Positions 27,203 to 36,515 of a stretch of 48,236 nt of DNA are shown here, in pieces. The notes under the pieces were generated by a model that was not told the DNA's origin, ran no database searches, and saw only the letters and a program-made list of their open reading frames with translations. Both the position numbers and the translations under genes were made by a program. Source of the DNA: Nitrospirota bacterium (GTDB lineage: Bacteria > Nitrospirota > Thermodesulfovibrionia > Thermodesulfovibrionales > SM23-35); contig JACAFE010000064.1 of the NCBI GenBank assembly GCA_013388435.1, positions 1-48,236 on the forward strand, given 5' to 3'. The stretch's first letter is position 1, and every line of letters starts with the position of its first letter.

Positions 27203-29326
27203 ATGCTGGTACGTATTTTCCCTTTTTTAGAATGGCTAAAAGATTACAACTTTGCCAAGCTAAAAGCCGATGCAATTGCCGGACTTACTGTTGCATTGGT
27301 ATTAATACCACAATCAATGGCTTATGCCCAGTTAGCAGGATTGCCGTCTTATTATGGTTTGTATGCATCTTTTTTACCTCCAATGCTTGCAGCATTGTTT
27401 GGTTCAAGCAGACAGCTTGCAACAGGACCTGTAGCCGTTGTTTCACTTATGACATCCGCATCTTTAAGTCCACTGGCTACAGCAGGAAGTGATAGTTTTA
27501 TAGCTTATGCAATATTACTTGCATTAATTGTAGGAGTTTTTCAATTTTTGCTCGGAGTTTTAAGACTCGGACTTGTCGTAAATTTTTTATCCCATCCTGT
27601 TGTCAATGGCTTTACAAATGGCGCAGCAATAATTATTGCCACTTCCCAGTTATCAAAAATGTTTGGTGTTTCAGTTGATGAAGCCCACCACCATTACGAA
27701 ACAGTCATTAGAGTTATAGAAGCTGCAATTCATTATACACACTGGCCTACCTTTATTATGGGCGTTGCTGCCTTTATTATTATGTTTGGATTAAAAAAGA
27801 TTAATCCAAGAATACCAAATGTTCTTGTAGCTGTTGCAATTACTACAGCTATTTCATGGGCAATAGGTTTTGAAAATGATATGAGGGTAGATATTTCCCG
27901 CATTCAGTCCCCAAAAGTTCATGAAATGATAGCAACCTTCAATAAGACACTAAATGATATTTCCGAACTCTCAAAACAACGCACCGAGAATACAAAACTT
28001 ATGGAAGAAGCAAAAAAGAATAATAATAAAATTGACATGCTGAATATTAAACGTAATGAAGAAGTTTTAAATGTCAATATGGAAGAACTTAAAATGAAAG
28101 AAGCATCTATAAGAAAAGAGCTTAGAGACATGTTTTTTACTGGGGTCAAGCAATCAGATGGTTCTATGTATTTTTACATTAAAGGAGAAACTCCACAGGG
28201 GATTGTATCAGATGGTAAAATATGGAGGCTTAAAGTAGGCAACAAACCAATAAAAGAGGATTCTATACGCTTTATTGGAGGCGGTGCTGTAGTGGGTGTT
28301 GTTCCAAAAGGACTACCTTCATTTACGGTACCACCAATAGATTTCAAGGTTATACTTCATCTTTTTCCATATGCTGTAATTATTTCTTTACTTGGTTTCA
28401 TGGAAGCAATATCCATAGCTAAAGCATTAGCGGGTAAAACAGGACAAAGGCTCGATCCAAATCAGGAACTTATAGGACAGGGCATAGCGAATATGGTTGG
28501 TGCTATAGGAAAAGGCTATCCTGTTTCAGGTTCTTTTTCCCGTTCAGCAGTTAATTTTCAGGCAGGAGCAATAACAGGGCTTTCAAGTGTTTTTACAAGT
28601 CTTGCTGTTCTGATAGTCCTTTTATTCTTTACTCCATTGCTCTATCATTTACCGCAATCGGTTCTTGCTGCTGTTATTATGATGGCTGTTATAGGTTTAA
28701 TAAATGTTTCAGGTTTTATACATGCATGGAAAGCCCAGAAATATGACGGGATTATTTCAGTACTTGCTTTTATTGCAACTTTAGCTTTTGCGCCTCATCT
28801 TGATAAGGGCATAATGATTGGCGTTGTTCTTTCAATTTCGGTATTCTTATATAAGAGCATGAAACCTAAGATTGCATTACTGGCGAGACATGAAGATAAA
28901 TCTCTTCGTTGCATCGAAACGCACGGACTCAAAGAATGCGAGCATATCGCAGTTGTTAGATTTGATGGTCCTTTGTTCTTTGCAAATTCAAGCTATCTTG
29001 AAGATAGTATAAGAGAACTCATCTCAAAGAAAAAGAATTTGAAGCATATTATTCTTGTTGCCAACGGTATAAATGAAATGGATGCTTCTGGCGAAGAAAC
29101 TCTGTCATTGCTTGTTGACAGGATAAGAAGTTCCGGAATGGATATATCTTTGAGCGGGGTTAATGAGTCGGTGATGGCAGTACTTAAACGTACACATCTT
29201 TTTGAAAAAATAGGCGCTGACCATATATATCCGACACAGGAACAGGCAATAAACAAGATTTATCCAACAACCCATAGGGACACATTAGAAAAAGAATGCC
29301 CCTTGCTTGCTGTTTGCAAGGTTTAG
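27203..29326 (+). CDS. SulP family anion transporter with coiled-coil insertion and STAS domain
   Basis: 707 residues from the ATG at 27203, which sits 8 nt after GGAG; the in-frame TTG at 27197 is only 2 nt after it and is unlikely. SulP hallmarks: ALVLIPQSMAYAQLAGLP, YYGLYASFLPP, SSRQLATGPVAVVS, LSHPVVNGFTNGAAI, GFMEAISIAKALA and GSFSRSAVN. The C-terminal STAS domain (about 565-690) has VRFDGPLFFANSSYLE and NEMDASGEETLSLL. Members carry sulfate, bicarbonate, molybdate or dicarboxylates. About 130 residues (roughly 225-355) form a charged, heptad-like insertion (SELSKQRTENTKLMEEAKKN) where the usual permease has a short loop. The gene is followed 19 bases later by the kinase-like/BON/receiver gene, suggesting joint regulation. 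Confidence 0.92.
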   Translation: MLVRIFPFLEWLKDYNFAKLKADAIAGLTVALVLIPQSMAYAQLAGLPSYYGLYASFLPPMLAALFGSSRQLATGPVAVVSLMTSASLSPLATAGSDSFIAYAILLALIVGVFQFLLGVLRLGLVVNFLSHPVVNGFTNGAAIIIATSQLSKMFGVSVDEAHHHYETVIRVIEAAIHYTHWPTFIMGVAAFIIMFGLKKINPRIPNVLVAVAITTAISWAIGFENDMRVDISRIQSPKVHEMIATFNKTLNDISELSKQRTENTKLMEEAKKNNNKIDMLNIKRNEEVLNVNMEELKMKEASIRKELRDMFFTGVKQSDGSMYFYIKGETPQGIVSDGKIWRLKVGNKPIKEDSIRFIGGGAVVGVVPKGLPSFTVPPIDFKVILHLFPYAVIISLLGFMEAISIAKALAGKTGQRLDPNQELIGQGIANMVGAIGKGYPVSGSFSRSAVNFQAGAITGLSSVFTSLAVLIVLLFFTPLLYHLPQSVLAAVIMMAVIGLINVSGFIHAWKAQKYDGIISVLAFIATLAFAPHLDKGIMIGVVLSISVFLYKSMKPKIALLARHEDKSLRCIETHGLKECEHIAVVRFDGPLFFANSSYLEDSIRELISKKKNLKHIILVANGINEMDASGEETLSLLVDRIRSSGMDISLSGVNESVMAVLKRTHLFEKIGADHIYPTQEQAINKIYPTTHRDTLEKECPLLAVCKV

Positions 29327-29345
29327 ATAGCATACGGAGGGAAAT

Positions 29346-30560
29346 ATGTCAATAATAAGTATCTTTTCAGGTAAGTATTGCAATGAAGAAATAGCTATAA
29401 AAGAAATTATAGCAATTTCCGGTTATAAATATCTCACCGACTCTGACTTCGTTTCAAAAGCCGCCAAACTATCCGGAATGTCTGAAGATAAAATATCAAA
29501 AGCTTTTTCTTCAAAAACATCTGTTTTTAATCAATTTACAAGAGAAAAGGAAAAATCAATTGCTTATCTTAAACTGGCAGTTGCAGAAACTTTAACTGAA
29601 GATAATCTAATTATTAATGGTTTTACAGCACATCTGATACCATCAAAAATTTCACATGTTCTTAAAATATGCCTCATAGCTGACATGAAATACAGGATTT
29701 CAGTTGCTGTTTCATCAGGTGTACAAGAAGGGGATGCATCAAAAGTAATTCATAAAAGTGACGAAGAAAAAATTGCATGGACAAGAACTATTCTTGAGAA
29801 AGATGACCCATGGAATATCTCGCTTTATGATATGGTTTTACCTACTGACAAGATGAACTCAAAAGAAATCGCAGATATGGTAAGAAAAAGTCTTGAAAAA
29901 GATGTTCTGAAAACAACCGAACAGAGCAAAAAAGCGGTTCAGGATTTCATTCTCGCAGCACATTTTGAAACAATTCTTGTAAATGAAGGATATTATTTTG
30001 TAAATGCAGAAGCAGAAAATGGCGAAGTTACATTAATAATAAATAAAAACGTTCTAATGCTTGAGAAACTTGAAAAAGAATTGCAGGCAATAGCAACTAA
30101 AGTTTCGGGGGTTAAATCCGTTTCAACAAAAGTTGGCAAAAAATTTTACCAAACTGATATTGTCAGAAAATATGATCTTGAGATGCCGACAAAATTATTG
30201 CTTGTTGATGACGAACGCCAGTTTGTTCAGACACTTTCTGAAAGACTTTTTATGAGAGAAATAGGTTCTGTTGTAGCTTATGATGGTGAAAGCGCTTTGA
30301 ATATAATCAAAGAAGAAGAACCTGAAGTTATGATACTTGACCTGAAAATGCCAGGAATTGATGGCATTGAAGTTCTTAAACGTGTTAAACAGACAAACCC
30401 GAAAATTGAAGTTATTATTCTTACAGGACACGGCTCTGAAGAAGACAGGAAAAAATGCATGGAACTTGGCGCTTTTGCATATCTTGAAAAACCTGTAGAT
30501 GTAAATCTTTTAAGCGAAACAATTAAAAAAGCAAACGAGAAGATAAAGCAAAGCAAATAG
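29346..30560 (+). CDS. Cytidylate-kinase-like / BON / response-regulator receiver fusion protein
   Basis: 404 residues in three parts. Residues 1 to about 195 resemble the cytidylate-kinase-like family (Cytidylate_kin_2): ISIFSG at the start, NLIINGFTAHLI, KICLIADMKYRISVA and NISLYDMVLPTDKMNSKEIA. The expected glycine-rich P-loop is replaced by SGKYCNEE, so catalysis is doubtful. Residues about 200-268 look like a BON domain (AHFETILVNEGYYFVN to VSGVKSVSTKVG). Residues 281-404 are a receiver with D288-D289, phospho-acceptor D332 (MILDLKMPG) and K382 (LEKPVD). It has no DNA-binding output. GGAGG precedes the ATG. It follows the SulP gene in one unit and its receiver is very similar to those encoded convergently. 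Confidence 0.78.
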   Translation: MSIISIFSGKYCNEEIAIKEIIAISGYKYLTDSDFVSKAAKLSGMSEDKISKAFSSKTSVFNQFTREKEKSIAYLKLAVAETLTEDNLIINGFTAHLIPSKISHVLKICLIADMKYRISVAVSSGVQEGDASKVIHKSDEEKIAWTRTILEKDDPWNISLYDMVLPTDKMNSKEIADMVRKSLEKDVLKTTEQSKKAVQDFILAAHFETILVNEGYYFVNAEAENGEVTLIINKNVLMLEKLEKELQAIATKVSGVKSVSTKVGKKFYQTDIVRKYDLEMPTKLLLVDDERQFVQTLSERLFMREIGSVVAYDGESALNIIKEEEPEVMILDLKMPGIDGIEVLKRVKQTNPKIEVIILTGHGSEEDRKKCMELGAFAYLEKPVDVNLLSETIKKANEKIKQSK

Positions 30561-30573
30561 GAATTTAAAGAGA

Positions 30574-30600
30574 AGGAGGGGTTTTGCCTAAACCCCTCCT
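30574..30600. terminator. Shared hairpin between convergent SulP and signalling operons
   Basis: A perfect 11-bp stem AGGAGGGGTTT (30574-30584) / AAACCCCTCCT (30590-30600) with the 5-nt loop TGCCT. It lies 14 bases after the plus-strand stop and 19 bases after the minus-strand stop. The flanking T-tracts are weak on both sides, so it may be a bidirectional terminator of moderate strength or a 3'-end stabiliser. Confidence 0.7.
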
Positions 30601-30619
30601 GTAACCTTAAAAAGCATAA

Positions 30620-31060
30620 CTACCAGGCTTTACTCTGGATAATTTCCTTAATATGTTCTTCGTGCTTCTTTTCAACAAGAACAAATCTCTTATGTTTTGC
30701 CTCTGCAATTTTTTCCATAATCTTATTGAGGTCAGCAGGTTTCTCCATGAAATCGATAGCTCCGGCTTTAATAGCTTCAACTCCTTTGTCAATTGAACCA
30801 TGTCCTGTTAGCATTATAATCTGCAAGTCAGGATTTTCGGCTTTAATTTTCTTGAGAGTTTCTATACCGCTCATGCCGGGCATGGCGAGGTCGAGAACTA
30901 TAGCATCAAATTCCTTGCCTTTAACTTTGTTGAGAGCTTCCTCACCACTTGTTGAGGTATCAACCTTTAACCCTCTTCCTTCAAGCCTCTGAGAAAAGAC
31001 TTTCAAAAATTGTTCCTCATCATCAACCAGTAAAACATTAGCATTAAGATCTTCTGCCAT
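30620..31060 (-). CDS. Stand-alone receiver (CheY-like) protein
   Basis: 146 residues, a single receiver: VLLVDDEEQF with the acidic pair at 13-14, phospho-acceptor D57 in AIVLDLAMPGMSG, the switch region MLTGHGSIDKG, and the Lys of FMEKPADL. A short charged tail (about 120-146) has no known domain. It has no output domain, so it must act by contact with other proteins or as a phosphate sink in a relay. An excellent AAAGGAGGATATT precedes the ATG. It is last in the five-gene minus-strand operon. It is one of four similar receivers in this block. Confidence 0.85.
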   Translation of the reverse strand: MAEDLNANVLLVDDEEQFLKVFSQRLEGRGLKVDTSTSGEEALNKVKGKEFDAIVLDLAMPGMSGIETLKKIKAENPDLQIIMLTGHGSIDKGVEAIKAGAIDFMEKPADLNKIMEKIAEAKHKRFVLVEKKHEEHIKEIIQSKAW

Positions 31061-31083
31061 TTAATATCCTCCTTTTTGATTAA

Positions 31084-31503
31084 TTATTTGTTATTATCTT
31101 CTGCTTCAGTTTTAATTCTTTCAATATTACTTTTTTCTTTATAGGCCTTTCTTATCTTCTGCTCAAGATTATCAATGTCAGCTGGTTTTTTTAAAAAATC
31201 AAAACCTCCAAGCAGTCTTGCTTCCTCTTCATCTTTATCAGTACCATGAGCTGTAAGTATAATTACCTGAACATCAGGATACATACTTTTAATTTTTTTA
31301 AGCACATCAAGTCCGTGCATGCCGGGCATTTTTAAGTCAAGTAACACTACATCAATAATTGATTCCTTTAGCTTTGAAAGAGCCTGTTCTCCATCATACA
31401 CAGGAACAGCTTTAATATTCCTCATGTTAAGCCGCTGTGACAGAGTATTAGCAAATGCAACTTCGTCATCTACAACAAGTAATTTTATTTCATTAGTATT
31501 CAT
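31084..31503 (-). CDS. Stand-alone receiver (CheY-like) protein
   Basis: 139 residues. LLVVDDEVAFANTLSQRL carries the acidic pair at 11-13, D56 in VVLLDLKMPGMHG is the phospho-acceptor, IILTAHGTDKDEEEARLLGG is the switch region, and FLKKPAD holds the conserved Lys. The tail after 120 is charged and helical. The RLNMRNIKAVPVYDGEQAL stretch is nearly shared with the receiver of the kinase-like fusion encoded opposite, pointing to local duplication. It follows the degenerate histidine kinase gene by 3 bases and precedes the next receiver by 23. Confidence 0.85.
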   Translation of the reverse strand: MNTNEIKLLVVDDEVAFANTLSQRLNMRNIKAVPVYDGEQALSKLKESIIDVVLLDLKMPGMHGLDVLKKIKSMYPDVQVIILTAHGTDKDEEEARLLGGFDFLKKPADIDNLEQKIRKAYKEKSNIERIKTEAEDNNK

Positions 31504-31506
31504 ATA

Positions 31507-32181
31507 CTAACTTTCATTAGATTTTTTTGAAATACTGGAAATTTTCATTACTACAACATTACCTTTATCTTCAATTTCTCCTTTCATTTTTTCTTTGACA
31601 ATGGTGTATATAATTTCTGATGAATCATTTAAAGGTTCATAATTTATAATGTCTCCCTTAAATGAAAGGCTTATTCTAACAGAATCATCCATTTTTTCGG
31701 TTGTAACAATGATACTGTTTCCATTTCCGGATTGCTGAATATATCTTTCAAAATAGCAGAAAATTACGAACTGAAACAAAGAAGGATTATTATAAAGTTC
31801 AGGGAGTTCGGGATCAAAAGATTTTTCGAAGCTGATTCTTTTCTGATTTGCGAGCCGCGTCATTAAGGCAATTAATTCTTCAAGGCTTTCATTAATATGA
31901 AAATTGCAAAATTGATTATCCATTCTATGGGCAAAGCTGTTTAAGAACCTGAATAAACCAATGCTTTTGTCAACCTGTTCAACTATTGAATTTATAATAT
32001 CAAGGTACTGGCTGCTACTATTTTCAGAAGATTTACCAATTCTTAACATATCATCCATAAGACCCGCAGATTCTTTTATTATTGCAAGATGATTCTTAAT
32101 TTCATGAGTAAAACTTGCAATAATTTTGCCGATGAATCTCAAATGAAGCTGGCGCAGTAATTGATCAAATTTCTCTTCCAT
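31507..32181 (-). CDS. Histidine-kinase-like protein lacking ATP-binding motifs
   Basis: 224 residues without membrane segments. A dimerisation/phospho-acceptor helix is clear: GKIIASFTHEIKNHLAIIKE with H26, matching the H-box of HisKA proteins and similar to AHEINNPLAIINEKAG of the full kinase encoded upstream. The region that should be HATPase_c has no N-box (FQFVIFCYFERYIQQ stands there), no DxGxG and no GTGLGL. The fold may persist, but ATP binding is not expected. It may serve as a phosphotransfer intermediate like Spo0B, as a phosphatase, or as a partner of the full kinase. AAAGGAAA precedes the ATG. Confidence 0.75.
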   Translation of the reverse strand: MEEKFDQLLRQLHLRFIGKIIASFTHEIKNHLAIIKESAGLMDDMLRIGKSSENSSSQYLDIINSIVEQVDKSIGLFRFLNSFAHRMDNQFCNFHINESLEELIALMTRLANQKRISFEKSFDPELPELYNNPSLFQFVIFCYFERYIQQSGNGNSIIVTTEKMDDSVRISLSFKGDIINYEPLNDSSEIIYTIVKEKMKGEIEDKGNVVVMKISSISKKSNES

Positions 32182-32191
32182 TATTTTTCCT

Positions 32192-32575
32192 TTAAGTTAA
32201 ACTTTTTCTCCTTTTCTCCATAGCACCATCAATCTTTGTGGTTAATTCACCTATATCAATTGGTTTCATTATATATTCAAATGCTCCACTCTTCATTCCT
32301 TCTTCGACACTTTTTATATCACCATGTCCTGTCAGTATAATAACCTCAATAGACGGATCAAACTTTTTTATGCTTTTAAGTATTTCTATACCGTTCATGC
32401 CCGGTATCTTAAGGTCGAGTATTACAACATCTGGAGGGCTTTTATGAAACAATGCCATTGCTTCAAGTCCGTTTGAAGCTGTGTCAACTATATAATTACG
32501 CATTTGTAATCGCTCCGCAAGAGCTGATGCAAATTCAAATTCGTCATCCACCAGAAGAACCTTTGTTTGTGACAT
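32192..32575 (-). CDS. Stand-alone receiver (CheY-like) protein
   Basis: 127 residues, essentially only a receiver: KVLLVDDEFEFASALAERL (acidic pair at 10-11), D54 in VVILDLKIPGMNG as phospho-acceptor, IILTGHGDIKSVEEGMKSGA, and MKPIDIGE with the Lys. There is no output domain. A strong AAGGAGG lies 9 nt before the ATG. It sits 14 bases behind the full kinase gene, so it is the most likely direct partner of that kinase, and it is 10 bases ahead of the degenerate kinase gene. Confidence 0.87.
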   Translation of the reverse strand: MSQTKVLLVDDEFEFASALAERLQMRNYIVDTASNGLEAMALFHKSPPDVVILDLKIPGMNGIEILKSIKKFDPSIEVIILTGHGDIKSVEEGMKSGAFEYIMKPIDIGELTTKIDGAMEKRRKSLT

Positions 32576-32589
32576 TATTAATACCCTCC

Positions 32590-34317
32590 TTACACAGCCT
32601 CGTATTTTACTGGGATATCAATCATAAAAGTAGTTCCCTTTCCAACTTCACTTTCTACAGCTATATTCCCGCCGAGTTTCTGAATAATTCCATAGGATAT
32701 AGAAAGTCCGAGGCCTGTTCCTTTCCCTTTCTCTTTTGTAGTATAAAATGGTTCAAATATATGTTTTATTTTATCCTTTGGAATACCTATTCCGTTATCG
32801 GATATTAAAATTCTTATTCTATTATTATCAACTATTTTTGTAATTACTTCAATACGTCCGTCTTCCTCCACTGCATCTATGGCATTGTTTATTATATTTA
32901 AAATTACCTGTTGTAATTGTCCTTTGTCAGTTTCAATTCTTGGCAATTCAGGAGTTAAGTCTAAAATAAGATTAATATTTCTGAACTGAATCTCTTTCTC
33001 AATAAAGCTTACTACTTCTTTAATTGCTTCGTTTAGATCAAAAAGATCATGAGATAAATCCATTCTTCTTGAAAATCCGAGAAGACGGTGTGTTATAGTA
33101 CGTGCTCGCGTAATACTATCAAATATTCCATTCAGTAAAGAAAGAAATTTATACTTATTCTTTTGAAGGTCGTCAGAGGATTCAAGAATGTCTTTCATCA
33201 ATCCTGCTTTTTCATTAATAATTGCAAGTGGGTTGTTTATTTCATGAGCAACCCCTGATGCGAGCCTGCCAATAGAAGCCATTTTCCCTGCATGTTCACA
33301 GGAAGCAATTGCTTCCTCACGTTCCATATCAGTCTGTTTAATTTTATTAACAATTGCCTGCGCTATTAGTGTAGTAATAAAAGTATTAAGTATTATACTC
33401 AAAATTATGATAAAAAATAATTCATTCCTGAAAATGCCAGGGATCCTGGCATATGGAGTTGACCGTATTACAGCAATGAGAAACCAGTTAGTATTTTTTA
33501 TTAAAGAATAGCCGCATATTTCATGCCCATGAGTTTTAATACTTGATTCTTTTACTACTGTTTGTTCATTTGAAGGCACAGGCGTTTCTATATATTTATC
33601 AAGAGCTTTGCCATGAAAACGTGTATCAGTTTGTAAAACTCCATCCTTATTAATTATAAAATTATCATCTTTTTCCCCAATGTTTAGATTATAAACATAT
33701 TTTTTTAAAGTTTCCATGTCAATTGTAGCTCTTATAATCCAGAAACCTTCTTTTTCAGGCAATTCTTTTTTAACTGCTATTGAAAAGTGAGGTATTTTCC
33801 TATATCCCATATAAACATCGCTTATATTTGAAGAACGAATAGCTACTTCATTAAACCAGTTCTGATTGGAATAATCTACACCTGTTAATTTATATGGACC
33901 TGCATATGCTATCTGAATACCATTATCATCAATTATACCTATATCTACAATACCAGGGAATTCTCTTTTAAATGCATAAAATACTTTTGAAAGTTTTTTA
34001 TAATCAGAAAGTTCTTCATATGTATATGATAGTGTAAGGAATCTTAAAAATGAGAGTCTCTCATCAAGAAATGCTTCAATAGATTGTTTCGTACTCTCAA
34101 TATCCCATTTTAATTGATTCCTGTAATCATCTTTAAGAATCTGCTGAAACCAGAAATAGCTGATTGTTACAACTATTAAAAGCGGAAGTATAGATAAAGC
34201 AACTTCGAGAATAACTATTCTTCTTTTAAGACTCTTATACTTATCCGAACCTAAAAGACCAAATAGATCATGAGATATAAACCATTCTTTGAAATTTGAA
34301 ATAGTAATATTTTTCAT
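32590..34317 (-). CDS. Membrane sensor histidine kinase with Cache-like periplasmic domain
   Basis: 575 residues. Membrane segments at about 32-56 and 300-326 frame a large extracytoplasmic region with double-Cache features (VDIGIIDDNGIQIAYAGPYK, then DVYMGYRKIPHFSIAVKK). HisKA follows with H-box ASGVAHEINNPLAIINEKAG at about 355-375, then HATPase_c with N-box QVILNIINNAIDAVEEDG, DNGIGIP, PFYTTKEKGKGTGLGLSIS. No HAMP is obvious. This is the only complete ATP-dependent kinase in the block and so the likely phosphate source for the four receivers. It is first in the operon. Its ligand is unknown; Cache domains often bind small organic molecules. Confidence 0.88.
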   Translation of the reverse strand: MKNITISNFKEWFISHDLFGLLGSDKYKSLKRRIVILEVALSILPLLIVVTISYFWFQQILKDDYRNQLKWDIESTKQSIEAFLDERLSFLRFLTLSYTYEELSDYKKLSKVFYAFKREFPGIVDIGIIDDNGIQIAYAGPYKLTGVDYSNQNWFNEVAIRSSNISDVYMGYRKIPHFSIAVKKELPEKEGFWIIRATIDMETLKKYVYNLNIGEKDDNFIINKDGVLQTDTRFHGKALDKYIETPVPSNEQTVVKESSIKTHGHEICGYSLIKNTNWFLIAVIRSTPYARIPGIFRNELFFIIILSIILNTFITTLIAQAIVNKIKQTDMEREEAIASCEHAGKMASIGRLASGVAHEINNPLAIINEKAGLMKDILESSDDLQKNKYKFLSLLNGIFDSITRARTITHRLLGFSRRMDLSHDLFDLNEAIKEVVSFIEKEIQFRNINLILDLTPELPRIETDKGQLQQVILNIINNAIDAVEEDGRIEVITKIVDNNRIRILISDNGIGIPKDKIKHIFEPFYTTKEKGKGTGLGLSISYGIIQKLGGNIAVESEVGKGTTFMIDIPVKYEAV

Positions 34318-34945: not shown

Positions 34946-35200
34946 ATGACATCCGCAGCAGTAAAGATTACAAGAAAGGGGCAAGTTACTATCCCAAAGG
35001 AAATCAGGGAGAGGCTTAAAACGAATACAGTTTATTTTGAAATAGAAGGTGATACTGTTATCGTAAAGCCGGTTAGGGATGCAGCTGGTTCATTAAGTGA
35101 ATACGCTAAAAATGTTAAGCCCGGCACCCCAATGAAGAAAATAAAAGAAATGGCATGGGAGGAGGCTGTTCGTGAGAAAACCCGCAAGAAGTCTTCCTGA
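34946..35200 (+). CDS. AbrB/MazE-type antitoxin
   Basis: 84 residues. The N-terminal swapped-hairpin AbrB fold is clear: AAVKITRKGQVTIPKEIRER, then TVYFEIEGDTVIVKPV. This part binds DNA, normally the module's own promoter. The C-terminal half (PGTPMKKIKEMAWEEAVREK) is the toxin-contact segment of VapB-like antitoxins. The stop lies 29 bases inside the following PIN toxin gene, so the pair is translationally coupled. AAGGTAAGG precedes the ATG. Confidence 0.88.
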   Translation: MTSAAVKITRKGQVTIPKEIRERLKTNTVYFEIEGDTVIVKPVRDAAGSLSEYAKNVKPGTPMKKIKEMAWEEAVREKTRKKSS

Positions 35201-35573
35201 CACTAATATTATTGTCCGCTATCTTGTTAAAGATGACATTCCCCTTTATACGAAAGCAAAGGGTTTTTTTGATAAGGTTAAAAACGGCAGTGAAAAGGCT
35301 GTTATTCTTGAAAGTGTTATTGCTGAGTGCATCTATGTTCTGACAAAGATTTATCAAGTGCCAAAAGACAAAGCTTCTCAAAGCCTGATTGATATCTTGC
35401 ACTACAAAGGGATTGCAAATGATGACCGAGAGGAACTCATCAAAGCATTGAACCTTTTTTCGAAACAGGGCATTGATATTGTTGATTGCATTTTATGTGC
35501 AAAGAGCGTAGACAGTGGTGATGTTCTCTTTTCATTTGATGATGAGTTAAATAAAGTGGTAAGACACTTATGA
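35172..35573 (+). CDS. PIN-domain toxin (VapC-like)
   Basis: 133 residues from a GTG start, with GGAGG about 8 nt upstream inside the antitoxin gene. PIN residues are LPDTNIIVRYLV (first acid), ESVIAECIYVLTKIY (second), and GIDIVDCILCAKS with SFDDELNKV (third and fourth). VapC toxins are ribonucleases, often cutting tRNA or rRNA loops, and are held inactive by the antitoxin encoded just before. The length is normal and all acidic positions are present. Confidence 0.88.
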   Translation: MRKPARSLPDTNIIVRYLVKDDIPLYTKAKGFFDKVKNGSEKAVILESVIAECIYVLTKIYQVPKDKASQSLIDILHYKGIANDDREELIKALNLFSKQGIDIVDCILCAKSVDSGDVLFSFDDELNKVVRHL

Positions 35574-35715
35574 ATATCTTTAATCTGAGAGACAGAGTCA
35601 TTAATGATTACCACCAGTATGTCGAAAGCTTTCTCAATTTCTTATAAAGGTGATATGTATATTTATACTTTACAAATAGTTCTACTTTTTCTAAATCAAC
35701 ATGTCTGTGGTATGG

Positions 35716-35758
35716 TTGACATATCACATTAATATGTGATACACATAATTATGTGATA
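35716..35758 (+). promoter_or_regulatory. Promoter and operator repeats of the RHH/PIN module
   Basis: TTGACA (35716-35721) is followed by TATCACAT (35722-35729), TAAT, ATGTGATA (35734-35741), then a perfect 14-bp palindrome CACATAATTATGTG (35742-35755), with a further ATGTGATA at 35751-35758. The four half-sites of ATGTGATA type are those expected for cooperative ribbon-helix-helix binding. GGAGG follows at 35766-35770, before the ATG. Confidence 0.65.
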
Positions 35759-35776
35759 TATTAAACGGAGGTTTGT

Positions 35777-36022
35777 ATGGAACGGCAGAATGTAACATTA
35801 TCCCTTCCTAAGGCGATGCTGAAAAAGGCTAAGATGCTGGCATTGAAGGAAGATAAGTCGCTCAGCGCCCTGATACGGGAATCCCTCGAGGAGAAGATCA
35901 GAAAGGACACAGGGTATAAGGAAGCTATGGAACGAGAAATAAGCCTTATGGAAAAAGGCTTTAATCTGGGCACAGGTGGCCGCATGCCATGCTCACGAGA
36001 GGAATTGCATGAACGGCGATAA
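35777..36022 (+). CDS. Ribbon-helix-helix antitoxin
   Basis: 81 residues. The N-terminal QNVTLSLPKAMLKKAKMLAL, followed by DKSLSALIRESLEEKI, is a ribbon-helix-helix DNA-binding fold. The C-terminal region (EREISLMEKGFNLGTGGRMP) resembles the toxin-binding tail of VapB-type antitoxins. It should dimerise on the palindromes just upstream and repress its own operon. The 3' end overlaps the PIN toxin start by 14 bases. Confidence 0.85.
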   Translation: MERQNVTLSLPKAMLKKAKMLALKEDKSLSALIRESLEEKIRKDTGYKEAMEREISLMEKGFNLGTGGRMPCSREELHERR

Positions 36023-36515
36023 GGTGTTTGTGGACACAAATGTGATTGTATATGCATATGATAAAGACGCAGGTAAAAAGCACCAGTCTGCCTTAAATAT
36101 TATGAAAGACCTTTGGCACTCGGGGCTTGGGATTATAAGCACTCAGGTTCTACAGGAGTTTTTCGTTACTCTCACAAACAAAATCTCAGCGCCGCTGAAA
36201 ATATCTGTTGTCCGGGAAACAATCAGAAGACTTTCAAGGTGGGATGTAGTGCTGATTGATGTAGACATAATAATAAGGGCAACAGAATTGCAGGAGAGAT
36301 ACAAATACTCATTCTGGGACTCTTTAATTATCGCATCTGCAATAGGAGGTGGGGCAAAAACCATCCTTTCAGAGGATCTTGCCGATGGTCAGACAATACA
36401 GGGCGTTACAATCAAGAACCCATTTATCGGTGAAGATACTATTTACCTTTTTTATCCTCAAAAGATTTTAAAGAAAAAGCAATCTCCATGTTATAAAAGA
36501 CAGGCAATTTCTTAA
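36009..36515 (+). CDS. PIN-domain toxin (VapC-like)
   Basis: 168 residues from ATG 36009, which has AGAGGA just upstream; a frame extension back to 35976 lacks a binding site and adds nothing conserved. PIN blocks: KVFVDTNVIVYAYDKD, STQVLQEFFVTLTNK, YSFWDSLIIASAIGGGAKTILSEDLADGQ. This is the usual set of acidic residues for a VapC ribonuclease. Family members commonly end just after a GVTIKNPF-like segment. Here about 22 further residues follow (LFYPQKILKKKQ), perhaps through loss of the original stop codon. Confidence 0.87.
   Translation: MNGDKVFVDTNVIVYAYDKDAGKKHQSALNIMKDLWHSGLGIISTQVLQEFFVTLTNKISAPLKISVVRETIRRLSRWDVVLIDVDIIIRATELQERYKYSFWDSLIIASAIGGGAKTILSEDLADGQTIQGVTIKNPFIGEDTIYLFYPQKILKKKQSPCYKRQAIS

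What the first reader, a model, noticed from the sequence alone, without database searches (positions are those of the whole stretch)
27203..34317. SulP transporter beside a four-receiver, two-kinase phosphorelay without DNA-binding output
Seen: a SulP anion transporter and a kinase-like/BON/receiver protein converge on an operon coding for one complete membrane histidine kinase, three single-domain receivers and one kinase-like protein without ATP motifs. All four receivers keep their acidic pair and phospho-Asp, and share near-identical stretches (DLKMPG, ILTGHG, RLxMRN), so they look locally duplicated. Established: single-domain receivers act by protein contact or as phosphate sinks. Inference: the block is a self-contained system that adjusts anion uptake (sulfate or bicarbonate) by phosphorylation rather than transcription. 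I know of no characterised system with this composition, though related SulP/response-regulator neighbourhoods may exist in sulfate-reducing bacteria.
Basis: partly seen in the sequence, partly recalled or inferred. Interest (0 to 1): 0.78.

Follow-up and report, generated by a model that had tools for sequence, protein, structure and literature searches.

The report
Phosphorelay wired to a sulfate transporter
Many sulfate-breathing bacteria carry a conserved gene set that joins a sulfate-type membrane transporter to a multi-step phosphate-passing signal chain that has no DNA-binding end in this window, which suggests that the cell controls sulfate uptake directly at the transporter.

Summary
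A SulP transporter and a cytidylate-kinase-like/BON-like/receiver fusion (FUS) converge on an operon: dCache kinase, receiver, pseudo-kinase, two receivers. The block is conserved: searching species genomes with the FUS N-terminus alone gave 166 relatives, mainly Desulfobacterota sulfate reducers. SulP is immediately upstream in 74 of 79 checkable loci; of 47 loci with enough flank, 46 have the kinase and 45 the pseudo-kinase. The pseudo-kinase keeps its H-box His (66/66) but lost its ATP motifs, so I read it as a ChpT/PhyT-like phosphotransferase. The FUS receiver is the best conserved part between phyla (median 75%). The receivers are old paralogues, not local duplicates. The same relay also sits beside DASS sodium:sulfate symporters, favouring sulfate over bicarbonate. 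A 2025 paper already reports the SulP/two-component/TetR cluster but calls its regulators WalR-type and proposes transcriptional control; three related loci hold only bare receivers. Relatives do add TetR or sigma-54 regulators, so 'no DNA-binding output' is not general, and the coiled-coil insertion is predicted periplasmic. Direct gating of SulP by FUS is inferred, not shown.

The parts
27203..29326 (+). SulP/SLC26 anion transporter, 707 aa
   Evidence: PF00916 E 3e-107 and STAS E 2e-17; TIGR00815 sulP above cut-off; median 67% identity to 64 relatives
27875..28276 (+). 134-aa insertion in the TM7-TM8 loop of SulP, predicted periplasmic
   Evidence: length 129-139 aa in 65 sequences but only 34% identical against 78-79% in the membrane parts; no hydrophobic segment; position from alignment to solved SULTR4;1 and prestin
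28925..29257 (+). STAS domain of SulP, with conserved D-A-S-G
   Evidence: PF01740; Ser in 63 of 65
29346..30560 (+). FUS: cytidylate-kinase-like / BON-like / receiver fusion, 404 aa
   Evidence: PF13189 and PF00072 in 69 of 69 members; AlphaFold pLDDT 85
29346..29894 (+). FUS cytidylate-kinase-like domain with eroded nucleotide-binding loop (F-S-G-x-F/Y-C)
   Evidence: PF13189 match in the window protein begins only at profile position 28; loop columns and Cys12 in 79 of 80
29919..30134 (+). FUS BON-like domain (tentative)
   Evidence: BON in 9 of 69 members, best E 0.01; secondary-structure order in model
30186..30557 (+). FUS receiver domain, phospho-Asp332
   Evidence: D332 in 80 of 80; median 75% identity to window, highest of all parts; VIA-align Z 22 to solved receivers
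30620..31060 (-). REC3: single-domain receiver with conserved C-terminal tail
   Evidence: PF00072; groups with the last receiver of Desulfobacterota operons, support 98/93
30623..30703 (-). REC3 tail ending in ...VEKKxExxxKEIIxxKAW at the C terminus
   Evidence: receiver ending in Trp with this tail found in at least 46 of 106 loci examined, many loci being truncated
31084..31503 (-). REC2: single-domain receiver
   Evidence: PF00072; acceptor residues conserved in its positional group
31507..32181 (-). HPT: pseudo-histidine-kinase, predicted histidine phosphotransferase, His26
   Evidence: H-box His and Asn30 in 66 of 66, N and G boxes lost; DHp hairpin plus CA-like fold, pLDDT 89.6; PDB matches are histidine kinases
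32192..32575 (-). REC1: single-domain receiver between HK and HPT
   Evidence: PF00072; phospho-Asp 61 of 61
32590..34317 (-). Membrane sensor histidine kinase with dCache sensor, HisKA, HATPase_c
   Evidence: catalytic boxes conserved in 67 sequences

Best explanation
The block is a conserved sulfate-uptake module of sulfate-reducing bacteria. The membrane kinase senses a periplasmic cue with its dCache domain and autophosphorylates. Phosphate passes to REC1, then to the His of the ATP-dead kinase HPT, then to the receiver of FUS and to REC2/REC3 (a Spo0- or PhyT-type four-step relay). FUS, encoded directly behind SulP and probably no longer a kinase, acts as an adaptor that binds SulP on its cytoplasmic side (STAS is the likely site) and changes its transport when phosphorylated. 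REC2 and REC3 act by contact or as phosphate buffers; REC3 through its tail. Shown: gene content, conservation, motif loss and retention, predicted folds. Inferred: direction of phosphotransfer, FUS-SulP contact, effect on transport, sulfate as substrate.
For: Linkage: SulP directly upstream of FUS in 74 of 79 loci found by FUS alone; HK in 46 of 47 and HPT in 45 of 47 loci with enough flank. Median gaps 19 bp SulP-FUS, -16 HK-REC, 4 REC-HPT. Insert-type SulPs sit beside a PF13189 protein in 10 of 10 cases against 2 of 15 for other SulPs in relatives, Fisher 2e-5. Relay: HPT keeps His 66/66 but has no ATP motifs; the HK keeps its boxes; the receivers keep their acceptor Asp. HPT is modelled as DHp plus degenerate CA, like ChpT (PMC3433190) and PhyT (PMC5898713). 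Output: FUS receiver 75% against 36-38% for the other receiver positions, 37% HK and 22% HPT, close to SulP's 67%; bare receivers only. Substrate: the same relay lies beside DASS sodium:sulfate symporters in other genomes, and shares one locus with SulP-FUS and DASS in G009/G018; sat and aprA are in this genome.
Against: No phosphotransfer, binding or transport has been measured. Relatives add TetR or a sigma-54 regulator, so transcription may be the main output there. In G033 and G021 FUS is encoded away from the insert-type SulP, which has its own receiver-less PF13189 partner. High FUS-receiver conservation could reflect contacts other than SulP. HK and HPT diverge far more than FUS between phyla, which weakens the idea of one tightly co-evolving chain. 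dsrA was not found in this genome, although the sister species has it.
Confidence: 0.5

Rival explanations
1. The relay controls expression, not activity. As proposed for the Desulfobacteraceae SulP cluster, the kinase and its regulators switch transcription of the transporter genes, with TetR as a second control.
For: PMC11887813 proposes it. TetR precedes SulP in most Desulfobacterota loci, and a sigma-54 regulator ends the operon in G033 and G021. REC1-3 could hand phosphate to a regulator elsewhere.
Against: The regulators are bare receivers in the Desulfosarcina alkanivorans, Desulfonema magnum and NaphS2 loci. The most conserved receiver is fused to the transporter's neighbour, not to a transcription factor. 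The same paper reports constitutive SulP formation. No TetR is next to SulP in the window.
Confidence: 0.2
2. HPT is not a phosphotransferase but a phosphatase or competitor, and REC1-3 are phosphate sinks; the kinase phosphorylates FUS directly.
For: PhyT (then PhyP) was first described as a phosphatase and also sequesters its partner. Several bare receivers fit sinks. Asn30 after the H-box is invariant, near positions used for phosphatase activity in some kinases (own knowledge).
Against: Gene order HK-REC-HPT-REC mirrors relay order, with overlapping or 4-bp gaps. Receiver acceptor sites are fully kept, as a relay needs.
Confidence: 0.15
3. The transporter carries bicarbonate and the relay controls inorganic carbon uptake.
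For: An LCIB-type carbonic-anhydrase-like protein, once fused to a receiver, is in the SulP-FUS operon of L031 and L197. LCIB also recurs in the DASS loci. Most characterised prokaryotic SulPs are bicarbonate carriers (PMC5840216).
Against: No LCIB in the 80 loci. The protein resembles the long sulfate-like group Ci and falls far below the BicA cut-off (151 of 880 bits). The relay co-occurs with DASS sulfate symporters and the hosts are largely sulfate reducers.
Confidence: 0.12
4. FUS is still an enzyme: a receiver-gated nucleotide kinase-like protein that makes or senses a nucleotide linked to sulfate activation, and SulP is only a neighbour.
For: PF13189 domain found in 69 of 69 members, fold well modelled, near-invariant Cys12 and Cys109 around the old nucleotide site.
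Against: The phosphate-binding loop is replaced in all members and the window match omits the first 27 profile positions. Strict SulP adjacency.
Confidence: 0.1

Closest known systems
SulP / two-component / TetR gene cluster of Desulfobacteraceae (PMC11887813, 2025)
   Same: SulP transporter, dCache sensor kinase, receivers, TetR repressor; described as widespread in Desulfobacteraceae; linked to sulfate uptake; a DASS cluster with similar kinases is described too.
   Different: The main text does not mention cytidylate, STAS, phosphotransferase or phosphorelay (0 hits); it calls the regulators WalR-type and proposes transcriptional control. The window is Nitrospirota, lacks TetR and has the relay convergent to SulP.
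SulP group Ci of sulfate reducers (PMC5840216, 2018)
   Same: About 710 aa, long insertion, Ala/Ser common in place of the PXYGLY proline; proposed sulfate transporters.
   Different: The insertion here is 129-139 aa and has no extra hydrophobic helix; FUS and the relay are not described there.
PhyT-SdrG-PhyR phosphorelay of Sphingomonas (PMC5898713) and ChpT of Caulobacter (PMC3433190)
   Same: A degenerate histidine kinase acts as phosphotransferase; in PhyT it passes phosphate from a single-domain receiver to an output regulator.
   Different: There the output is a sigma-factor switch or CtrA; here the candidate output is a fusion protein beside a transporter. PhyT is membrane-anchored; HPT here has no membrane part.
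Spo0 phosphorelay of Bacillus (Spo0F-Spo0B-Spo0A)
   Same: Kinase, bare receiver, HK-derived phosphotransferase, output.
   Different: Output Spo0A binds DNA and the genes do not form an operon with a transporter (own knowledge).
DauA-DctA-DcuS of E. coli (PMC5703999)
   Same: A SulP-family transporter physically coupled to a sensor-kinase complex.
   Different: The transporter acts on the sensor; no phosphorelay to the transporter.
SypE-SypA of Vibrio fischeri (PMC10120452)
   Same: A response-regulator-type protein acts on a STAS domain by protein contact.
   Different: Serine kinase partner switching with a free STAS protein, no transporter.

Membership tests
SulP/SLC26 anion transporters | Sulfate_transp membrane domain plus C-terminal STAS | tested here: met
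SulP group Ci of sulfate reducers | about 710 aa with long insertion relative to Rv1739c-type SulP | tested here: met
   707 aa, insert 134 aa, 129-139 in relatives; the survey says about 90 aa
SulP group Ci of sulfate reducers | phylogenetic placement in clade C | not tested
   the survey's alignment was not available here
HK-derived histidine phosphotransferase (ChpT/Spo0B/PhyT type) | conserved phospho-acceptor His in a DHp hairpin | tested here: met
   His26 in 66 of 66; helices 2-48 and 53-88
HK-derived histidine phosphotransferase (ChpT/Spo0B/PhyT type) | CA-like domain without ATP-binding motifs | tested here: met
   N box replaced, G boxes absent; no HATPase match
HK-derived histidine phosphotransferase (ChpT/Spo0B/PhyT type) | transfers phosphate between two receivers | not testable with these tools
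   gene order only
HK-derived histidine phosphotransferase (ChpT/Spo0B/PhyT type) | specific structural or sequence kinship to ChpT or Spo0B | tested here: inconclusive
   SPOB_ab sub-threshold in 1 of 65; PDB rows are ordinary histidine kinases
Single-domain receivers (CheY/Spo0F type) | DD, phospho-Asp, Thr, Lys kept and no output domain | tested here: met
Cytidylate-kinase-like family PF13189 | profile match above curated cut-off | tested here: met
   58.2 against 28 bits; 69 of 69 members match
Cytidylate-kinase-like family PF13189 | intact nucleotide-binding loop | tested here: not met
   window match begins at profile position 28; loop replaced by F-S-G-x-F/Y-C in 80 sequences
SulP/two-component/TetR cluster of PMC11887813 | SulP with dCache kinase and receivers adjacent | tested here: met
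SulP/two-component/TetR cluster of PMC11887813 | TetR repressor gene | tested here: not met
   absent beside SulP in the window; present in most Desulfobacterota loci
SulP/two-component/TetR cluster of PMC11887813 | WalR-type (DNA-binding) response regulators | tested here: not met
   receivers only in the window and in L089, L138, L142
BON domain PF04972 | profile match | tested here: inconclusive
   9 of 69 members, best E 0.01

The most novel reading that the evidence does not exclude
A class of signalling system in which a four-step phosphorelay ends not on DNA but on an adaptor (PF13189-BON-receiver) that gates a SulP sulfate transporter. The same relay is plugged into DASS sulfate symporters in other genomes, and a shared receiver with a conserved Trp-ended tail (REC3) connects both. 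Sulfate respiration would then be throttled at its first step within seconds.
Probability: 0.35. Interest if true: 0.8.

Novelty: new variant of a known kind. Interest (0 to 1): 0.62.

Why it matters
Sulfate uptake costs energy and comes before every step of sulfate respiration, a main anaerobic route of carbon breakdown in sediments. How uptake is tuned is open: transport studies report switching between high and low accumulation, while the SulP protein is reported as constitutive, which points to control of activity. This module names candidate parts for such control and makes it testable with a handful of mutants. It would also be a rare phosphorelay whose end point is a transporter.

Tried and rejected
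Local duplication of receivers: rejected by the tree (FUS receivers one group at 100/96 across phyla). Correlation of FUS with dsrA across relatives: uninformative, dsrA is in nearly all genomes of the order. 'p153', an apparent conserved 153-aa ORF beside the relay, is an antisense frame of REC3. The N-terminal part of FUS was not separately tested by fold comparison, because the receiver filled the match list. ChpT and Spo0B do not appear among the PDB rows; this is no evidence against kinship. A literature search for cytidylate kinase-like with response regulator and sulfate-reducing gave no papers. An additional TM helix in the SulP insert, predicted for group Ci in 2018, was not seen here.
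Full report
What is there. The window belongs to a Nitrospirota genome (2.15 Mb, 98% complete); its closest named relatives are Thermodesulfovibrionales and Nitrospirae MAGs. Pfam assigns SulP with STAS, a cytidylate-kinase-like (PF13189) plus receiver fusion (here FUS), a dCache sensor kinase, three bare receivers, and a 224-aa protein with only a sub-threshold HisKA match.

Conservation. FUS without its receiver was used as bait, so SulP and the relay were not selected for. In relatives, 14 of 61 genomes gave a match at E 0.001, ten of them strong. In GTDB species genomes, 166 stretches encode a relative and 80 loci were kept, from Nitrospirota and many Desulfobacterota, including cultured Desulfonema magnum, Desulfosarcina alkanivorans and NaphS2. 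SulP lies directly 5' on the same strand in 74 of 79 loci. In the 47 loci with more than 5.5 kb downstream, the kinase is present in 46 and the pseudo-kinase in 45. Of the five exceptions, L152 has a second PF13189 gene between SulP and FUS, and L137 was missed by the script although SulP is adjacent to its FUS. The usual order is TetR-SulP-FUS-HK-REC-HPT-REC, with median gaps of 19, 51, -16, 4 and 56 bp from SulP onward. In Nitrospirota the module is patchy: 14 of 396 genomes, in two families.

Which parts are constrained. Median identity to the window protein is 75% for the FUS receiver, 67% for SulP, about 50% for the two other FUS regions, 36-38% for the other receivers and the kinase, and 22% for HPT. 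The part most constrained between phyla is thus the receiver of the protein encoded next to the transporter. This is the main reason for naming FUS as the output; it is an inference.

The pseudo-kinase. HPT keeps His26 and Asn30 in 66 of 66 sequences, while the N box is replaced and the glycine boxes are gone; the partner HK keeps its boxes. AlphaFold on 65 sequences gives a long helical hairpin and a small alpha/beta domain at pLDDT 89.6. PDB matches are histidine kinases (VIA-align Z about 14-16; many rows have high rmsd because domain angles differ; best CA-domain match Z 16.0, rmsd 2.5 over 129 residues). ChpT and PhyT are phosphotransferases of this kind of origin. The role as phosphotransferase is therefore likely but untested.

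FUS. PF13189 and the receiver are found in all 69 members scanned. The phosphate-binding loop is gone: the window match starts at profile position 28, and the loop reads F-S-G-x-F/Y-C, with Cys12 in 79 of 80. Cys109 and Cys371 are also nearly or fully invariant, which may hint at redox or sulfide sensing; this is unexplained. The BON assignment is weak by sequence. The model shows the expected order of elements at residues 192-263. Fold comparison tested only the receiver part.

SulP. Like group Ci of the 2018 survey, the protein is about 710 aa with a long insertion. The insertion is 129-139 aa in 65 sequences, 34% identical, without a hydrophobic stretch, while membrane parts are 78-79% and STAS 70% identical. 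Alignment to solved SULTR4;1 and prestin puts it between TM7 and TM8; in the 7+7 inverted-repeat fold that loop is extracytoplasmic (own knowledge of SLC26 structures). It could meet the periplasmic dCache sensor, but not a cytoplasmic receiver. In relatives, insert-type SulPs are next to a PF13189 protein in 10 of 10 cases, other SulPs in 2 of 15 (Fisher 2e-5). In G021, G033 and G053 that neighbour lacks the receiver, and FUS is encoded elsewhere. The basic pair is thus SulP plus a PF13189 protein; the receiver adds relay control.

The relay beyond SulP. A profile of HPT found the same HK-REC-HPT set in further Nitrospirota genomes, most of them without FUS. Nine of 16 fetched neighbourhoods hold a DASS sodium:sulfate symporter (L185-L189, L192, L194, L198, L199), often with CBS-domain, TauE and LCIB-type proteins. 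In L027 and L028 the DASS operon and SulP-FUS flank one relay. This matches the 2025 report that SulP and DASS clusters have alike sensor kinases, and it favours sulfate as the transported anion; sat and aprA are in the genome, dsrA was not found here but is in the sister species. Against this stands an LCIB-type protein in the SulP operon of L031 and L197.

REC3. The last receiver has a conserved tail that ends in Trp, in Nitrospirota and Desulfobacterota and in DASS loci alike (at least 46 of 106 loci). REC3 groups with the last receiver of many Desulfobacterota operons at 98/93. The tail is a good candidate for a docking element.

What was known. PMC11887813 (2025) reports the SulP cluster of Desulfobacteraceae with two-component genes and TetR, calls the regulators WalR-type and proposes transcriptional control; the words cytidylate, STAS, phosphorelay and phosphotransferase do not occur in its main text (its supplements were not readable here). 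In three related loci the regulators are bare receivers. The cluster is therefore known in outline; the relay, the pseudo-kinase, the FUS adaptor and the spread to Nitrospirota appear to be new readings, as far as the papers searched here go. Novelty is set at 'new variant of a known kind': a Spo0/PhyT-like relay with a transporter-side output.

Verdict. Observation confirmed; linkage very strong; relay likely; direct gating of sulfate uptake plausible and testable, about even odds.

Noticed in passing
L185-L189, L192, L194, L198, L199: The same HK-REC-HPT relay lies beside DASS sodium:sulfate symporters with CBS-domain, TauE, GntR and LCIB-type carbonic-anhydrase-like genes.
   Followed up: partly
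L031:10611-11792 and L197:8901-9695: LCIB-type carbonic-anhydrase-like protein in the SulP-FUS operon, once fused to a receiver.
   Followed up: partly
window 30623-30703 (REC3 C terminus): Receiver tail ending in a C-terminal Trp, conserved between Nitrospirota and Desulfobacterota.
   Followed up: partly
window 29379-29381, 29670-29672 and 30456-30458 (FUS Cys12, Cys109, Cys371): Three near-invariant cysteines in FUS, the first at the place of the lost phosphate-binding loop; possible redox or sulfide sensing.
   Followed up: no
L036:2644-10891: A PF13189 protein, TauE exporter, bare receiver and two PPDK_N proteins in one stretch: another anion-transport neighbourhood with the same domain.
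   Followed up: no
L024:3881-5890: A receiver fused to an AAA/Lon-type protease near the relay in the sister species.
   Followed up: no
whole genome G000: dsrA not found although aprA and sat are present and the sister species has dsrA; probably an assembly gap.
   Followed up: partly
window 34946-36515: Two small gene pairs beside the relay that look like toxin-antitoxin pairs (AbrB-like/PIN-like), judged from sequence only.
   Followed up: no
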